From Alkalicoccobacillus plakortidis (lineage in GTDB: Bacteria > Bacillota > Bacilli > Bacillales > Bacillaceae_D), in assembly GCF_023703085.1 (NCBI RefSeq), contig NZ_JAMQJY010000001.1, forward strand, positions 1,364,001 to 1,428,000: 64,000 nt of DNA, given 5' to 3'. Positions 8,736 to 58,092 of the stretch are shown here, piece by piece. The notes beneath the pieces were generated by a model. The model was not told the DNA's origin and ran no database searches. It saw only the letters and a program-made list of their open reading frames with translations. Made by a program: the position numbers and the translations under genes. Position 1 is the first letter of the stretch. Every line of letters starts with the position of its first letter.

Positions 8736-8882
8736 ATATATGCATAAATCTATATTCGACAGTTTTTTTAAATATCCTTTTATCATACCCTATTTTTATG
8801 GACTTATAGAAGAAAATCTTTTATTTAAAATGAAGTTGGGAAAAAAGAAGAACGTATGAAAGTGTAAAGACGAAGGGGAGGA

Positions 8883-8908
8883 GCGAAGGGCGAAGGGCGA
8901 AGGGCGAT
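8883..8908. repeat. Short GCGAAGG tandem repeat
   Basis: Three perfect 7-bp copies of GCGAAGG (8883, 8890, 8897) and a partial fourth lie directly before the CAAGA array. It is the left edge of the gene-free stretch 8736-9670. Confidence 0.8.
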
Positions 8909-8910
8909 AC

Positions 8911-9162
8911 CAAGAAACACAGGATCGTAACCAAGAAAGATTGCTAATACACCAAGATCCTAGCTGCGATAGCAAGATAAATTGATTCATAATCAAGAGG
9001 AATTCACCTTTTACTAAGATCCGTACCTTTACTCCAAGAAAAAACGCAAGTGAACCAAGAGCCTCGACTCATTAGCAAGAGAATGGTCAACTTAAGCAAG
9101 AACCTCCCATATCACACCAAGAGACTTCTCCCAATACCAAGACGCTCCTCTCCATAACTAGA
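8911..9162. repeat. Phased CAAGA array, 12-13 copies about 20.6 bp apart
   Basis: The pentamer CAAGA (one TAAGA, last copy CTAGA) begins at 8911, 8932, 8953, 8973, 8994, 9015, 9035, 9056, 9076, 9097, 9118, 9138 and 9158. Steps are 20 or 21 bases. The base before it is usually C or G. The 15 or so bases between the cores show no evident similarity, so this is not an ordinary tandem repeat: only a core and its spacing are kept. There is no convincing open frame. A protein meeting the same face of the helix every two turns would fit, but this is inference. Confidence 0.85.
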
Positions 9163-9216
9163 TAGAAAGCAATTGTCTGCATTTCATCGGCGTGCCAGTG
9201 GAAAGCATCCACGCAC

Positions 9217-9656
9217 CATCCTTGATTCCATTTGCTCATCCTCGATTCCGCTCTCTCATCCTCGATTCCGACCTCTCATCCTCGTTTCCGATCCCTCATC
9301 CCCGATTCCTCTCTCTCATCCTCGTTTCTGATCCCTCATCCTCGATTCCTCTCTCTCATCCTTGATTCCGCTCTCTTATCCTCGTTTCCGATCCCTCATC
9401 CTCGATTCCTCTCCCTCATCCTCGATTCCTCTCCCTCATCCTTGATTCCGCTCACTCATCCCCGATTCCTCTCTCTCATCCTCGATTCCTCTCCCTCATC
9501 CTCGATTCCGCTCCCTCATCCTCGATTCCTCTCTCTCATCCTTGATTCCGCTCTCTCATCCTCGATTCCTCTCTCTCATCCTTGATTCCGCTCTCTTATC
9601 CTTGATTCCGCTCACTCACCCTCGATTCCGACCTCTCATCCTCGATTCCGCTTTAT
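9217..9656. repeat. 20-bp tandem repeat, about 22 copies
   Basis: Unit CTCATCCTCGATTCCGCTCT and variants; the CATCC/TATCC start recurs at exactly 20-base steps from 9217 to 9637. Variation is confined to a few places (CTCG, CTTG or CCCG; GATT or GTTT; the last six bases). One strand is pyrimidine-rich. Because 20 is not a multiple of three, the open frames across it are by-products with a 20-residue periodicity. It lies between the CAAGA array and the murC terminator. Confidence 0.92.
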
Positions 9657-9670
9657 TCCTTAAACCAAAA

Positions 9671-9708
9671 ACAACGAACGATCCTCTCCTGAGGACCGTT
9701 CGTCGTGT
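9671..9708 (-). terminator. murC terminator
   Basis: Read on the minus strand, ACGAACGGTCCTC pairs with GAGGATCGTTCGT (one G-U), followed by TGTTTTT. It closes the murC transcript before the repeat arrays. The terminator after the YjjX-type gene (18062-18100) has a very similar stem. Confidence 0.85.
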
Positions 9709-9730
9709 TGATTTGTTACGTATTTATCTG

Positions 9731-55465: not shown

Positions 55466-56431
55466 ATGAATTCAGCAGTAAACGATATACCTGCACACTT
55501 TGTAGATAAACGCTATTACACATGGAGTGCACATCTTCGTGACCATTTTGGAACCAAGGTATTTAAAGTACCACTTGATGCCGGTTTTGATTGTCCCAAT
55601 CGAGACGGGAATGTGGCACACGGAGGTTGTACCTTTTGTAGTGTAAGAGGCTCCGGAGATTTTGCTGGGGACAGGACAGATGACTTAGTTACACAATTCC
55701 ATACGATTAAAGAACGTATGCATAAGAAGTGGAAAACTGGTAAGTACATTGGTTATTTTCAAGCCTACACTAATACCTATGCACCCGTAGAAACTTTGAG
55801 GAATTATTTTGAAGTGATCCTCAAGCAAGAAGGAGTTGTTGGCCTTTCCATTGCAACTCGGCCCGATTGTTTGCCTGATGATGTTGTAGAATATTTAGCT
55901 GAATTAAATGAACGCACGTACCTTTGGGTAGAGCTAGGTTTACAAACCGTACACGAGCGAACCGCAACTATCATTAATCGTGCTCACGATTATGAATGCT
56001 ATAAGGAAGGCGTCGCTAAGCTCCGAAAGCACGGTATACGAGTTTGTTCCCATATCATTAATGGCTTACCACTTGAAACAACTGAGATGATGCTCGATAC
56101 AGCTAAAGAAGTAGCCAAGCTTGATGTACAAGGAATCAAAATTCACTTACTACATCTATTAAAGAAAACAGGTATGGTGAAGCAATATGAAAAAGGCCTT
56201 GTTGATTTAATGGATATGGACGAGTATATGAAATTAGTCGCAGATCAGCTTGAAGTGATTCCAGAGGACATGATTGTTCACCGTTTGACTGGCGACGGTC
56301 CTCCAGAACTCCTTATTGGTCCAATGTGGAGTATGAACAAATGGGATGTTTTAAACGGTATTGAAAAGGAATTAAAGGACCGAGGTACGTGGCAGGGTAT
56401 TCATTATCAGAAGGAGCAACTATCACAATGA
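55466..56431 (+). CDS. ytqA: YtqA, radical SAM protein
   Basis: The 321-residue protein belongs to the TIGR01212-type radical SAM family, with the cluster cysteines in FDCPNRDGNVAHGGCTFCS, plus YFQAYTNTYAP, SIATRPDCLP and HIINGLPLET. Family members modify an unknown substrate; a tRNA role has been suggested for relatives. ATG at 55466 follows AGGAAGG; a TTG lies one codon before. Its stop overlaps the ytqB start (ATGA), so the two are coupled. Confidence 0.92.
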   Translation: MNSAVNDIPAHFVDKRYYTWSAHLRDHFGTKVFKVPLDAGFDCPNRDGNVAHGGCTFCSVRGSGDFAGDRTDDLVTQFHTIKERMHKKWKTGKYIGYFQAYTNTYAPVETLRNYFEVILKQEGVVGLSIATRPDCLPDDVVEYLAELNERTYLWVELGLQTVHERTATIINRAHDYECYKEGVAKLRKHGIRVCSHIINGLPLETTEMMLDTAKEVAKLDVQGIKIHLLHLLKKTGMVKQYEKGLVDLMDMDEYMKLVADQLEVIPEDMIVHRLTGDGPPELLIGPMWSMNKWDVLNGIEKELKDRGTWQGIHYQKEQLSQ

Positions 56432-56999
56432 AGCTAAAAGGCATTCTTCCTTTTGCCCGTGAGTTGCTTGCACAAGCTTTAACTGAAGGTGATGCAGCAG
56501 TTGATGCCACTGCTGGCAATGGTCATGACAGCTGCTATTTGGCAAAGCTTGTAGGTCCAACAGGTCACGTCTATAGTTTTGATGTACAAGAAACGGCTAT
56601 TGTTGCTACAAAAACTCGGCTCCTTAATGAATCACTAGCAGATCGAGTTCATTTGTTCCATACCGGACACGAACAGGCCGTTGAAAAGATTCTTCCTGAG
56701 CACCTGTCAATTTTAAAAGCAGCCATTTTTAACCTCGGATATCTGCCAGGCAGTGATAAGAGTATAACAACTCAAGCAGAAACAACGATTACAGCGATTA
56801 ATGGTTTGTTTGATGCCATGCAGCAGGAGGGATTATTGTCCTTGTGATTTATCACGGGCATGCCGAAGGGGCCGTTGAAAAAGAGGCCGTTCTCGACTAT
56901 GTACAGCAACTACCTCAGGAGAAAGCTCATGTACTCCAATATGGATTTATTAATCAAAAAAACGCTCCACCTTTTATCATAGCAATTGAAAAACGCTAA
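56428..56999 (+). pseudogene. ytqB: YtqB, class I SAM methyltransferase (rRNA-methylase family), one frameshift
   Basis: Joined frames give 190 residues: VDATAGNGHDSCYLAKLVG (SAM loop), YSFDVQETAIVAT, FNLGYLPGSDKSITTQ and, after the shift, [20 protein letters not shown]. YtqB binds SAM; its acceptor is debated. One base is missing near 56824 (CAGCAGGAGG; CAGCCAGGAGG would give QPGGIIVL as in the family). This is a loss, unlike most other shifts here, but again beside a CCAG string. AAGGAG lies before the ATG. Confidence 0.85.
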
Positions 57000-57023
57000 T
57001 ACATTTGAAAGGCAGTGACGAAC

Positions 57024-57590
57024 GTGCCCAATTTAGATAACATTCTTGAATATAACAAACATTTTGTTGAAACAAAAGAATACGAAAACTATCAAACCAC
57101 CAAATTTCCAAATAAAAAACTAGTCATCCTAACATGTATGGATGCTCGTTTGGCAGAGCTTCTCCCTAGATCGATGAATATTGGACAAGGAGATGCTAAG
57201 ATTATCCGTAATGCAGGGGCCGTCATTTCTCACCCTTTCGGAAGTATCATGAGAAGTATCCTACTTGCCGTTTTTGAGCTTCAAGCAGAAGAAGTCTTGA
57301 TTATTGGTCATCACGGTTGCGGAATGGCCGGACTTGAATCAGAAAGCTTCCTCAAAAAAGCGGAAGCACGAGGCATTGACATGAATGTCATTGAACCACT
57401 TGAGTACGCAGGAGTTGACGTCAAACAATTTTTAACTGGCTTTGCAAACGTAGAAGAGAGCGTTACACATAGCGTTGATATTGTAGAAAACCACCCGCTA
57501 ATGCCAAAAGAAATTCCTGTCCATGGTTTAGTGATCCATCCTGAGACTGGAAAGCTAGAACTGTTAAAAAGAGGCGAAGCTAGATCGTAA
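57024..57590 (+). CDS. ytiB: YtiB, beta-type carbonic anhydrase
   Basis: The 188-residue protein has the zinc-binding and catalytic motifs LTCMDARL (Cys, Asp, Arg) and IIGHHGCGM (His, Cys) and resembles B. subtilis YtiB through to GLVIHPETGKLEL. It interconverts carbon dioxide and bicarbonate in the cytoplasm. The GTG at 57024 has AAAGG at 11 bases; a GTG at 57015 is too close to that site. It follows ytqB by 24 bases and ends at its own terminator. Confidence 0.92.
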   Translation: MPNLDNILEYNKHFVETKEYENYQTTKFPNKKLVILTCMDARLAELLPRSMNIGQGDAKIIRNAGAVISHPFGSIMRSILLAVFELQAEEVLIIGHHGCGMAGLESESFLKKAEARGIDMNVIEPLEYAGVDVKQFLTGFANVEESVTHSVDIVENHPLMPKEIPVHGLVIHPETGKLELLKRGEARS

Positions 57591-57595
57591 GCAAG

Positions 57596-57633
57596 AGAAC
57601 CTCCCCACTCAATTGATGTGAGGAGGTTTTTGT
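57596..57633 (+). terminator. ytiB terminator
   Basis: AACCTCC pairs with GGAGGTT around CCACTCAATTGATGTGA (itself self-complementary), then TTTTTG. It precedes the second repeat locus. Confidence 0.85.
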
Positions 57634-57675
57634 TGTTTGTTGTTGAGTTAGTTTTGTGAGTTAGTTTTGTGAGTT

Positions 57676-58085
57676 ATCGTTGTGATTTTTGGGGCTATCG
57701 TTTCGATCTTTGCTCCATCGTTTTGATTCCAGGGGCTATCGTTTCATTCCTCCCTCCATCGTTTTGATTCCGGGGGCTATCGTTTCAATCTTCCCTCCAT
57801 CGTTTTGATTTCGCGTTCTATCGTTTCAATCTCCCCTCTATCGTTTTGATTCCAGGGGCTATAGTTTCAATCTCCCCTCTATCGTTTTGATTCCATGGCC
57901 CATTGCTCCACTCTTCCCTCCATCGCTCCATTTCCATGGCCCATTGCTCCACTCTTCCCTCCATCGCTCCATTTCCAAGCGTCCATTGCTCCACTCTCAC
58001 CTCCATTGCTCCAATTCCAGCGTCCATTGCTCCACTCTCACCTCCATTGCTCCAATTCCAGCGTCCATTGCTCCACCCACACCTC
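57676..58085. repeat. Phased ATCG/CATTG array, 20 copies in alternating 20/21-bp steps
   Basis: Starts of ATCGTTT or CATTGCTCC-type units (counted at the A) fall at 57676, 57697, 57717, 57738, 57758, 57779, 57799, 57820, 57840, 57861, 57881, 57902, 57922, 57943, 57963, 57985, 58005, 58026, 58046 and 58067. Steps alternate 21 and 20 with one 22, so two half-units make about 41 bp. The sequence changes near 57900 from ATCGTTTTGATTCC type to CATTGCTCCA type while the phase goes on. It fills the convergent gap between the ytiB and ytpA terminators. Open frames across it are by-products. Confidence 0.92.
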
Positions 58086-58092
58086 GCCAATC

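What the first reader, a model, noticed from the sequence alone, without database searches (positions are those of the whole stretch)
8880..58090. A family of about two-turn phased arrays placed outside transcription units
Three arrays at two loci share a pitch near 20-20.6 bp, a GATTCC-like string (arrays two and three) and the same placement: in untranscribed gaps, beside factor-independent terminators (after murC; between convergent ytiB and ytpA). This suggests a DNA-level job such as binding a nucleoid-structuring protein, setting a domain edge, or curving DNA. It is the best candidate here for an undescribed system; no protein partner can be pointed to in the window.
Basis: partly seen in the sequence, partly recalled or inferred. 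Interest (0 to 1): 0.75.

Follow-up and report, generated by a model that had tools for sequence, protein, structure and literature searches.

The report
Two-helix-turn satellite arrays between bacterial genes
Stretches of DNA between genes in this Bacillus-type bacterium carry a short motif repeated about every 20.5 base pairs (two turns of the helix); such repeats have been catalogued before, their job is unknown, and their anatomy here looks more like a row of protein-binding sites on one face of the DNA than like random repeats.

Summary
A1 (8911-9162) has 13 CAAGA-type cores at pitch 20.60 with unrelated spacers; A2 (9217-9655) has pitch exactly 20; A3 (57676-58085) has 20.5 (41-bp dimers). 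They belong to a genome-wide family: the triple CAAGA pattern occurs 493 times against 1 for its mirror image. In an 864-kb sample, 27 of 30 array blocks touch no predicted gene. About eight core types share the pitch, and convergent gaps are preferred.

The class is already published: 20-21 nt "constant size, variable sequence" tandem repeats of Bacillus (Subirana & Messeguer 2021, PMC8161180), function unknown. My paper searches listed no functional follow-up.

Not found in that text: a non-integer pitch kept by alternating 20/21 steps; cores kept while spacers are randomised; one gap holding different core families in sister species; similar cores in different taxonomic families. These favour a DNA-level role (a protein binding one face of the helix) over structured RNA, coding repeat or curved A-tract DNA. 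No protein partner was identified. The exact 20-bp pitch of A2 and fast turnover argue against one strict rule. Selfish or neutral satellite DNA remains a serious rival.

The parts
8871..8907 (+). 7-bp CGAAGGG repeat (5.4 copies), left neighbour of A1, not part of the 20.5-bp periodicity
   Evidence: TRF
8911..9162 (+). Array A1: 13 CAAGA-type cores at pitch 20.60, spacers unrelated to one another
9217..9655 (+). Array A2: about 22 copies of CATCCTCGATTCCGCTCTCT, pitch exactly 20, C/T-rich on the plus strand
9671..9706 (-). intrinsic terminator of murC, abutting A2
   Evidence: terminator scan
9731..11095 (-). murC (UDP-N-acetylmuramate--L-alanine ligase), upstream neighbour
   Evidence: TIGR01082 above its cut-off
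8227..8700 (-). DUF948 protein (ytxG by recall of the B. subtilis gene order), downstream neighbour of A1/A2
   Evidence: PF06103 E 2.8e-32
   Evidence: PF00484
57598..57632 (+). hairpin plus T-run after the carbonic anhydrase gene, read by eye; not listed by the scan
   Evidence: sequence
57676..57899 (+). Array A3, first half: ATCGTTT core, 41-bp dimers (20+21)
57900..58085 (+). Array A3, second half: CCAT(T/C)GCTCCA core, 41-bp dimers
58093..58128 (-). hairpin plus T-run after the hydrolase gene, read by eye; not listed on this strand by the scan
   Evidence: sequence
   Evidence: PF12146 E 3.3e-63

Best explanation
A1-A3 are members of a genome-wide family of intergenic satellite arrays in which a short core (about 6-10 bp, for example YACCAAGA) recurs once per two helix turns, so that the cores face one side of the DNA. 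Most likely each core is a contact site for a DNA-binding protein that assembles side by side along the array, forming a nucleoprotein stretch placed where it disturbs no promoter: after terminators and between convergent genes. There it could act as a local nucleoid scaffold or as a barrier to read-through and converging polymerases. Shown: periodicity, cores kept against randomised spacers, spacing kept, intergenic and convergent placement, turnover. Inferred: protein binding, assembly and the job itself.
For: Pitch peak at 20/21. Triple CAAGA pattern 493 vs 1 in the mirror control. Chains were allowed steps of 18-23, yet 314 of 320 steps are 20 or 21; where the spacer resembles no neighbour, 86 of 98 successive-core distances of up to 34 bp are 20/21. 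Bases not used to find the chains are conserved next to the core (A at -2 in 82% of 222 distinct cores), while columns +5 to +16 carry 0.01-0.24 bit. In G034 (same family, another genus) TAAA after GACAA is 97-100% conserved over 32 distinct units, while the commonest base of the spacer columns reaches 0.31-0.69; G099 (another family) shows TAA at 97-100% over 31 units. 20/21 steps alternate even where no duplication is recognisable (20>20 4, 20>21 23, 21>20 22, 21>21 16; Fisher p=7e-4; 3 transitions with a 19 left out). G043 (another family) averages 20.6 with 21 and 19 steps. Convergent-gap excess. The same gap holds different cores in sister species. RNA folds are not clearly better than shuffles.
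Against: No protein partner found or tested. A2 and the TTTACCGATATCC arrays keep 20 bp, and G034 keeps 21 (29 of 29 steps), so phase would drift over a long array; a strict one-face rule does not hold for all. The alternation may be a relic of old 41- or 62-bp duplications; A1 alone is not significant (permutation 0.18), and in G043 nearly all spacers are recognisably duplicated (3 transitions left without) and 596 of 2171 array bp lie in predicted genes. Positions turn over quickly: 2 of 7 orthologous gaps shared one way, 3 of 10 the other. About eight core types in one genome need either several proteins or shape readout.
Confidence: 0.45

Rival explanations
1. Selfish or neutral satellite DNA: slippage and unequal exchange with a favoured step of about two helix turns expand arrays in gaps where insertions are tolerated; they have no function, and convergent gaps are simply the safest places.
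For: Fast turnover; higher-order duplications of 41, 62, 82 and 123 bp in many arrays; many unrelated cores in one genome; placement avoids genes and favours convergent gaps; homogeneous 20-bp arrays such as A2.
Against: Homogenisation would keep the whole unit, not a 6-10 bp core with diverged spacers; steps other than 20/21 are rare even where spacers share no more than chance (G034 29 of 29 steps of 21); the same narrow pitch range recurs in other taxonomic families.
Confidence: 0.3
2. RNA-level role: arrays are transcribed and act as small RNAs or protein sponges (proposed in PMC8161180, discussed mainly for the 52-nt class).
For: 52-nt satellites of B. coagulans are transcribed according to PMC8161180 and PMC8625621 (passages). 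In tandem gaps CAAGA lies antisense to the flanking genes in 7 of 8 cases (5 of 6 in G000, 2 of 2 in G004), a weak strand preference. The best of 8 folded strands has z -1.77, with 12 of 200 shuffles folding as well.
Against: A2 and A3 sit behind terminators; the 8 folded strands have z from -1.77 to +1.88; CAAGA arrays occur in both strand orientations (11 plus, 7 minus over G000 and G004); a 20/21 alternation has no obvious RNA meaning.
Confidence: 0.12
3. Rho-type transcription barrier acting through one C-rich strand (rut-like) instead of through a dedicated protein array.
For: A2 is C-rich and G-poor on the plus strand (C 0.44, G 0.08); convergent placement.
Against: The sense transcript of murC would carry the G-rich strand of A2, the wrong one for rut (rut features recalled); rut sites need no 20.5-bp spacing; the CAAGA strand is mostly but not always the C-richer one.
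Confidence: 0.06

Closest known systems
20-21 nt constant-size tandem repeats (satellites) of Bacillus and other bacteria, Subirana & Messeguer 2021, PMC8161180
   Same: Repeat size 20-21, non-coding, several sequence families per genome, a short characteristic string in the repeats, patchy among species; the authors note two helix turns and suggest a nucleoid protein.
   Different: Not found in the text I read (parts 1-4 of 5, and passages): non-integer pitch with alternating steps, core kept with randomised spacers, convergent-gap bias, one gap with different cores in sister species, similar cores in different families. The words intergenic and convergent do not occur in its main text. Its supplements were not read.
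52-nt constant-size satellites of Bacillus (same authors)
   Same: Constant size, variable sequence, conserved short strings; 52 is close to five helix turns.
   Different: Different unit length; no such array in this window.
CRISPR arrays (compared from recall)
   Same: Short conserved element alternating with unrelated spacers at constant spacing.
   Different: Units far too short, cores 6-10 bp, dozens of loci per genome.
Plasmid iterons and parC/parS centromere repeats (compared from recall)
   Same: Direct repeats of about two helix turns bound side by side by a protein.
   Different: Those are single loci beside rep or par genes; here arrays are dispersed over the chromosome.
REP/BIME extragenic palindromes (compared from recall)
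   Same: Extragenic, multi-copy, behind genes.
   Different: No stable hairpin per unit in the strands folded.

Membership tests
20-21 nt constant-size satellites (PMC8161180) | at least four tandem repeats of 20-21 nt | tested here: met
   A1 13, A2 about 22, A3 about 20 units
20-21 nt constant-size satellites (PMC8161180) | several families with the same size and different sequence in one genome | tested here: met
   about eight core types in G000, grouped by eye, all at steps of 20-21
20-21 nt constant-size satellites (PMC8161180) | not coding for amino-acid repeats | tested here: met
   27 of 30 blocks of the C1 sample without gene overlap; 0 Pfam hits for 3 ORFs across A2/A3. In four C2 stretches chosen near known matches, 2 of 6 blocks overlap predicted genes, one of them (all 21-bp steps) probably a true coding repeat
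20-21 nt constant-size satellites (PMC8161180) | short characteristic string in the repeats | tested here: met
   YACCAAGA-type core logo for the CAAGA arrays
20-21 nt constant-size satellites (PMC8161180) | species-specific families | tested here: inconclusive
   individual arrays are mostly species-specific, but the CAAGA family is present in 5 of 5 genus members and similar cores occur in other families
52-nt constant-size satellites | unit of 51-53 nt | tested here: not met
   no such array in the window
phased A-tract curved DNA | A/T-tracts in helical phase | tested here: not met
   A/T-tracts depleted, 7.6 vs 21.6 per kb (arrays also have higher GC, 0.488 vs 0.364); no excess identity at lag 10-11
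REP/hairpin elements | stable hairpin per unit | tested here: not met
   8 folded strands of A1-A3, z -1.77 to +1.88
protein-bound direct-repeat arrays (iterons, centromeres) | cognate DNA-binding protein | not testable with these tools
   no partner identified; needs pull-down or footprinting
protein-bound direct-repeat arrays (iterons, centromeres) | single locus beside its rep or par gene | tested here: not met
   dispersed over the chromosome

The most novel reading that the evidence does not exclude
A dispersed chromosomal 'comb': a family of DNA-binding proteins that coat intergenic satellite arrays on one helix face with a register of about 20.6 bp, whose recognised core evolves together with the arrays (core swaps in the same gap between sister species), insulating convergent genes or organising the nucleoid, and invented or spread several times across Bacillales.
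Probability: 0.15. Interest if true: 0.8.

Novelty: new member of a known kind. Interest (0 to 1): 0.45.

Why it matters
Bacterial satellites of constant size and variable sequence have been in print since at least 2021 with no known function. This genus is a good place to settle the question: hundreds of core units in some members, a clear core, sister species with and without an array in the same gap, and predictions that a pull-down with spacing mutants can test directly.

Tried and rejected
Coding repeat: rejected for these arrays, because the pitch is not a multiple of three, blocks are mostly intergenic and three array ORFs have no Pfam hit. One C2 block (G000:C2:121146-121381, all 21-bp steps, inside a predicted gene) is probably a true coding repeat and was not counted as a core type.

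Structured RNA or hairpin: rejected for the 8 strands folded; Rfam gave only a T-box and a SAM riboswitch elsewhere in the window.

Curved A-tract DNA: rejected.

Replication-polar signal (KOPS/SRS-like): the A3-type matches looked polarised by contig, but CAAGA matches are not (229 vs 264; 11 plus and 7 minus arrays). Density rises away from the GC-skew switch near 0.4 Mb of C1, taken as the terminus (44 array bp per 20 kb at 0.4-1.0 Mb, 411 at 2.0-2.76 Mb; Spearman p=0.06 for loci and 0.047 for bp): a lead only.

One universal core: CAAGA exceeds 10 matches in 8 of 115 relatives outside the genus, but its mirror control AGAAC also reaches 10 or more in 5 of them, so CAAGA itself is not clearly special. 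A second 5-mer, GACAA, uncovered GGACAATAAA arrays in G034 and G099 and a few hits elsewhere. The triple GACAATAA pattern is absent from 398 of 398 genomes drawn over the class; G034 and G099 were not in that draw, and the triple was not run on them as a positive control.

Viral carriage: ACCAAGA triples in 54 viral contigs and GACAATAA triples in 2. I looked at 1 of these 56; it was an unrelated 10-bp repeat. Not pursued.

Protein partner: no search made; it needs the gene content of array-rich and array-poor genomes.

Papers: searches were searches (listings only). The authors' 2020 J Bacteriol paper is not held and is known only through PMC8161180. I read parts 1-4 of 5 of PMC8161180 plus passages, and passages of PMC8625621 and PMC6749651.

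Limits: gene calls rest on a home-made ORF and dicodon caller (onward), so gap counts are approximate. Gaps under 50 bp were left out, and a gap counts as array-bearing with 60 bp or more of array. The higher-order lags use the 38 of 54 blocks that are at least 180 bp long.
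Full report
OBSERVATION. The window is G000:C1:1364001-1428000 of a 4.37-Mb draft genome in 9 contigs. Among the 80 named loci returned, the closest MurC is that of Alkalihalobacillus pseudalcaliphilus at 71% identity. A1 (8911-9162) shows 13 CAAGA-type cores, pitch 20.60, mean spacer identity 0.36. A2 (9217-9655) is a 20-bp repeat and A3 (57676-58085) a 41-bp (20+21) repeat. A1 and A2 lie in the murC-ytxG gap, A2 right behind the murC terminator. A3 lies between a carbonic anhydrase gene and a convergent alpha/beta hydrolase gene, between two hairpins that I read by eye (one search did not list them in that form).

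A GENOME-WIDE FAMILY. The pattern CAAGA-N15/16-CAAGA-N15/16-CAAGA has 229 forward and 264 reverse matches in the genome, against 1 and 0 for the mirror pattern. A2 DNA finds 11 places and A3 DNA 41 in the same genome, themselves included. In 40 sampled stretches plus the window (864 kb), chains of five or more identical 5-mers number 36 at pitch 20/21, 5 at 19/20, 2 at 21/22, and at most 10 elsewhere, mainly near 18, 27 and 36, i.e. codon multiples. Of 30 merged blocks, 27 do not overlap a predicted gene; the other three overlap by 0.37, 0.55 and 0.76, and I take those ORFs to be spurious readings of array DNA, which is inference. In four further stretches of C2, chosen near known matches, 2 of 6 blocks overlap predicted genes, one of them probably a real coding repeat. 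About eight core types, grouped by eye, share the pitch.

ANATOMY. With steps of 18-23 bp allowed, the 48 CAAGA chains have steps 21 (182), 20 (132), 19 (5) and 22 (1). In CAAGA-dense regions, successive cores are 20 or 21 bp apart 346 times and 41 bp apart 56 times; between 6 and 34 bp the other distances sum to 20. Where the spacer resembles no neighbour, 86 of 98 distances up to 34 bp are 20 or 21. The core extends beyond the bases used for detection: A at -2 in 82% and C or G at -1 in 90% of 222 distinct cores, while columns +5 to +16 carry 0.01-0.24 bit; the columns just left of the core (-4, -3, and the matching +17 to +19) carry 0.26-0.41 bit. Steps alternate: over the 33 chains of five or more, 20 to 20 happens 9 times, 20 to 21 86, 21 to 20 90, 21 to 21 49, with 8 further transitions involving 19 or 22. 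Where no spacer duplication is recognisable the counts are 4, 23, 22 and 16 (Fisher p=7e-4; 3 transitions to 19 left out). The best higher-order lag is 41 in 29 of 38 long blocks, 40 in 6 and 42 in 3. For A1 alone the regularity is not significant (0.18). Exceptions told plainly: A2 keeps exactly 20 and the TTTACCGATATCC arrays nearly so.

PLACE AND TURNOVER. In G000, arrays occupy 8 of 80 convergent, 14 of 432 tandem and 3 of 113 divergent gaps of at least 50 bp (convergent vs rest p=0.009; divergent vs rest p=0.60); in G004, 7 of 44, 3 of 142 and 0 of 42 (p=0.0005; divergent p=0.21). So there is an excess in convergent gaps, but no proven avoidance of divergent ones. The murC-ytxG gap is 195-234 bp between aligned ends and array-free in 4 of 4 congeners. 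The ytiB-ytpA gap is short and empty in G001 and G003 (147 and 175 bp), but holds TCTTGGT-type arrays in G002 (1094 bp) and ACCAAGA-type arrays in G004 (472 bp), where the window has ATCG/ATTG-type arrays. Of 8 array gaps of G000 in a 420-kb region, 7 had both flanks in the 400-kb G004 stretch and 2 of these hold arrays there; of 12 array gaps of G004, 10 had both flanks and 3 hold arrays in G000 (one array block on each side that the gene caller put inside an ORF was left out of these lists). The three shared gaps are convergent. Array-free orthologous gaps range from 48 to 3813 bp, most under 700. Arrays thus come and go within a genus, the flanking genes mostly staying neighbours, and the core type can differ in the same gap.

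PHYLETIC RANGE. All 5 genus members held carry the CAAGA family (42 to 1008 matches; mirror control 0 to 5), though in the stretches sampled G001 (64 kb) and G003 (145 kb) had no 4-mer chain of six or more. Among 115 other relatives, 8 exceed 10 matches, but the mirror pattern also reaches 10 or more in 5, so different genomes seem to use different cores. In G043 (another family) the core context is TTTTCAAGAATT, with 21 and 19 steps averaging 20.6, but its spacers are nearly all recognisable duplicates and 596 of 2171 array bp fall in predicted genes; in G099 (another family) the core is GGACAATAA with 23 steps of 21 and 8 of 20; in G034 (same family, another genus) it is GGACAATAAA with 21 only (29 of 29), in short arrays. 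A core kept against diverged spacers therefore recurs in G034 and G099; in G043 it cannot be judged. The triple GACAATAA pattern was absent from 398 of 398 genomes drawn across the class, so that core is rare overall.

WHAT IT IS NOT. RNA folds of 8 strands have z from -1.77 to +1.88 against shuffles. A/T-tracts are depleted in arrays (7.6 vs 21.6 per kb; arrays are also GC-richer) and there is no excess identity at lag 10-11, so the half-unit is not repeated and A-tract curvature is unlikely. Three ORFs across the arrays have no Pfam match.

MECHANISM. Shown: a short core once per two helix turns, spacing kept while spacers change, intergenic and terminator-side placement, rapid turnover. Inferred: the core is a protein contact on one helix face; neighbours touch; the resulting stretch insulates convergent genes or scaffolds the nucleoid. 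The main rival is neutral or selfish satellite DNA. It explains turnover and placement, but not why only the core and the spacing survive in old arrays.

PRIOR ART. Subirana & Messeguer 2021 (PMC8161180; parts 1-4 of 5 read, and passages) describe 781 cases of 20-21 nt repeats in 176 Bacillus genomes with constant size and variable sequence, note that the size is two helix turns, and suggest nucleoid proteins or small RNAs. The finding is thus a member of a published class. Searches for a functional follow-up listed none that I recognised from titles and abstracts; subscription journals are mostly not held.

VERDICT. Observation confirmed and extended; interpretation partly supported; known kind, function open.

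Noticed in passing
window 12898-13411: 141-bp (47-residue) in-frame tandem repeat, 3.6 copies, in an FtsK/SpoIIIE-type DNA translocase gene (11259-14255, minus) next to murC.
   Followed up: partly
window 8871-8907: CGAAGGG repeated 5.4 times just left of A1; it resembles, from recall, the SpoIIIE recognition string of B. subtilis.
   Followed up: no
window 53798-54028 and 60948-61056: T-box leader and SAM riboswitch, both on the minus strand.
   Followed up: no
L220 8560-9760 (G002, ytiB-ytpA gap): A higher-order repeat of about 255 bp joins TCTTGGT arrays with an AATAAAAATGAATATTTTTATT palindrome that looks, from recall, like an arginine-repressor box.
   Followed up: no
G000:C1, sampled stretches: Array density rises from about 44 to 411 array bp per 20 kb away from the GC-skew switch near 0.4 Mb; borderline significance.
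   Followed up: partly
G034, G099: GGACAATAA(A) arrays at 20-21 bp with diverged spacers in two different families of the order.
   Followed up: partly
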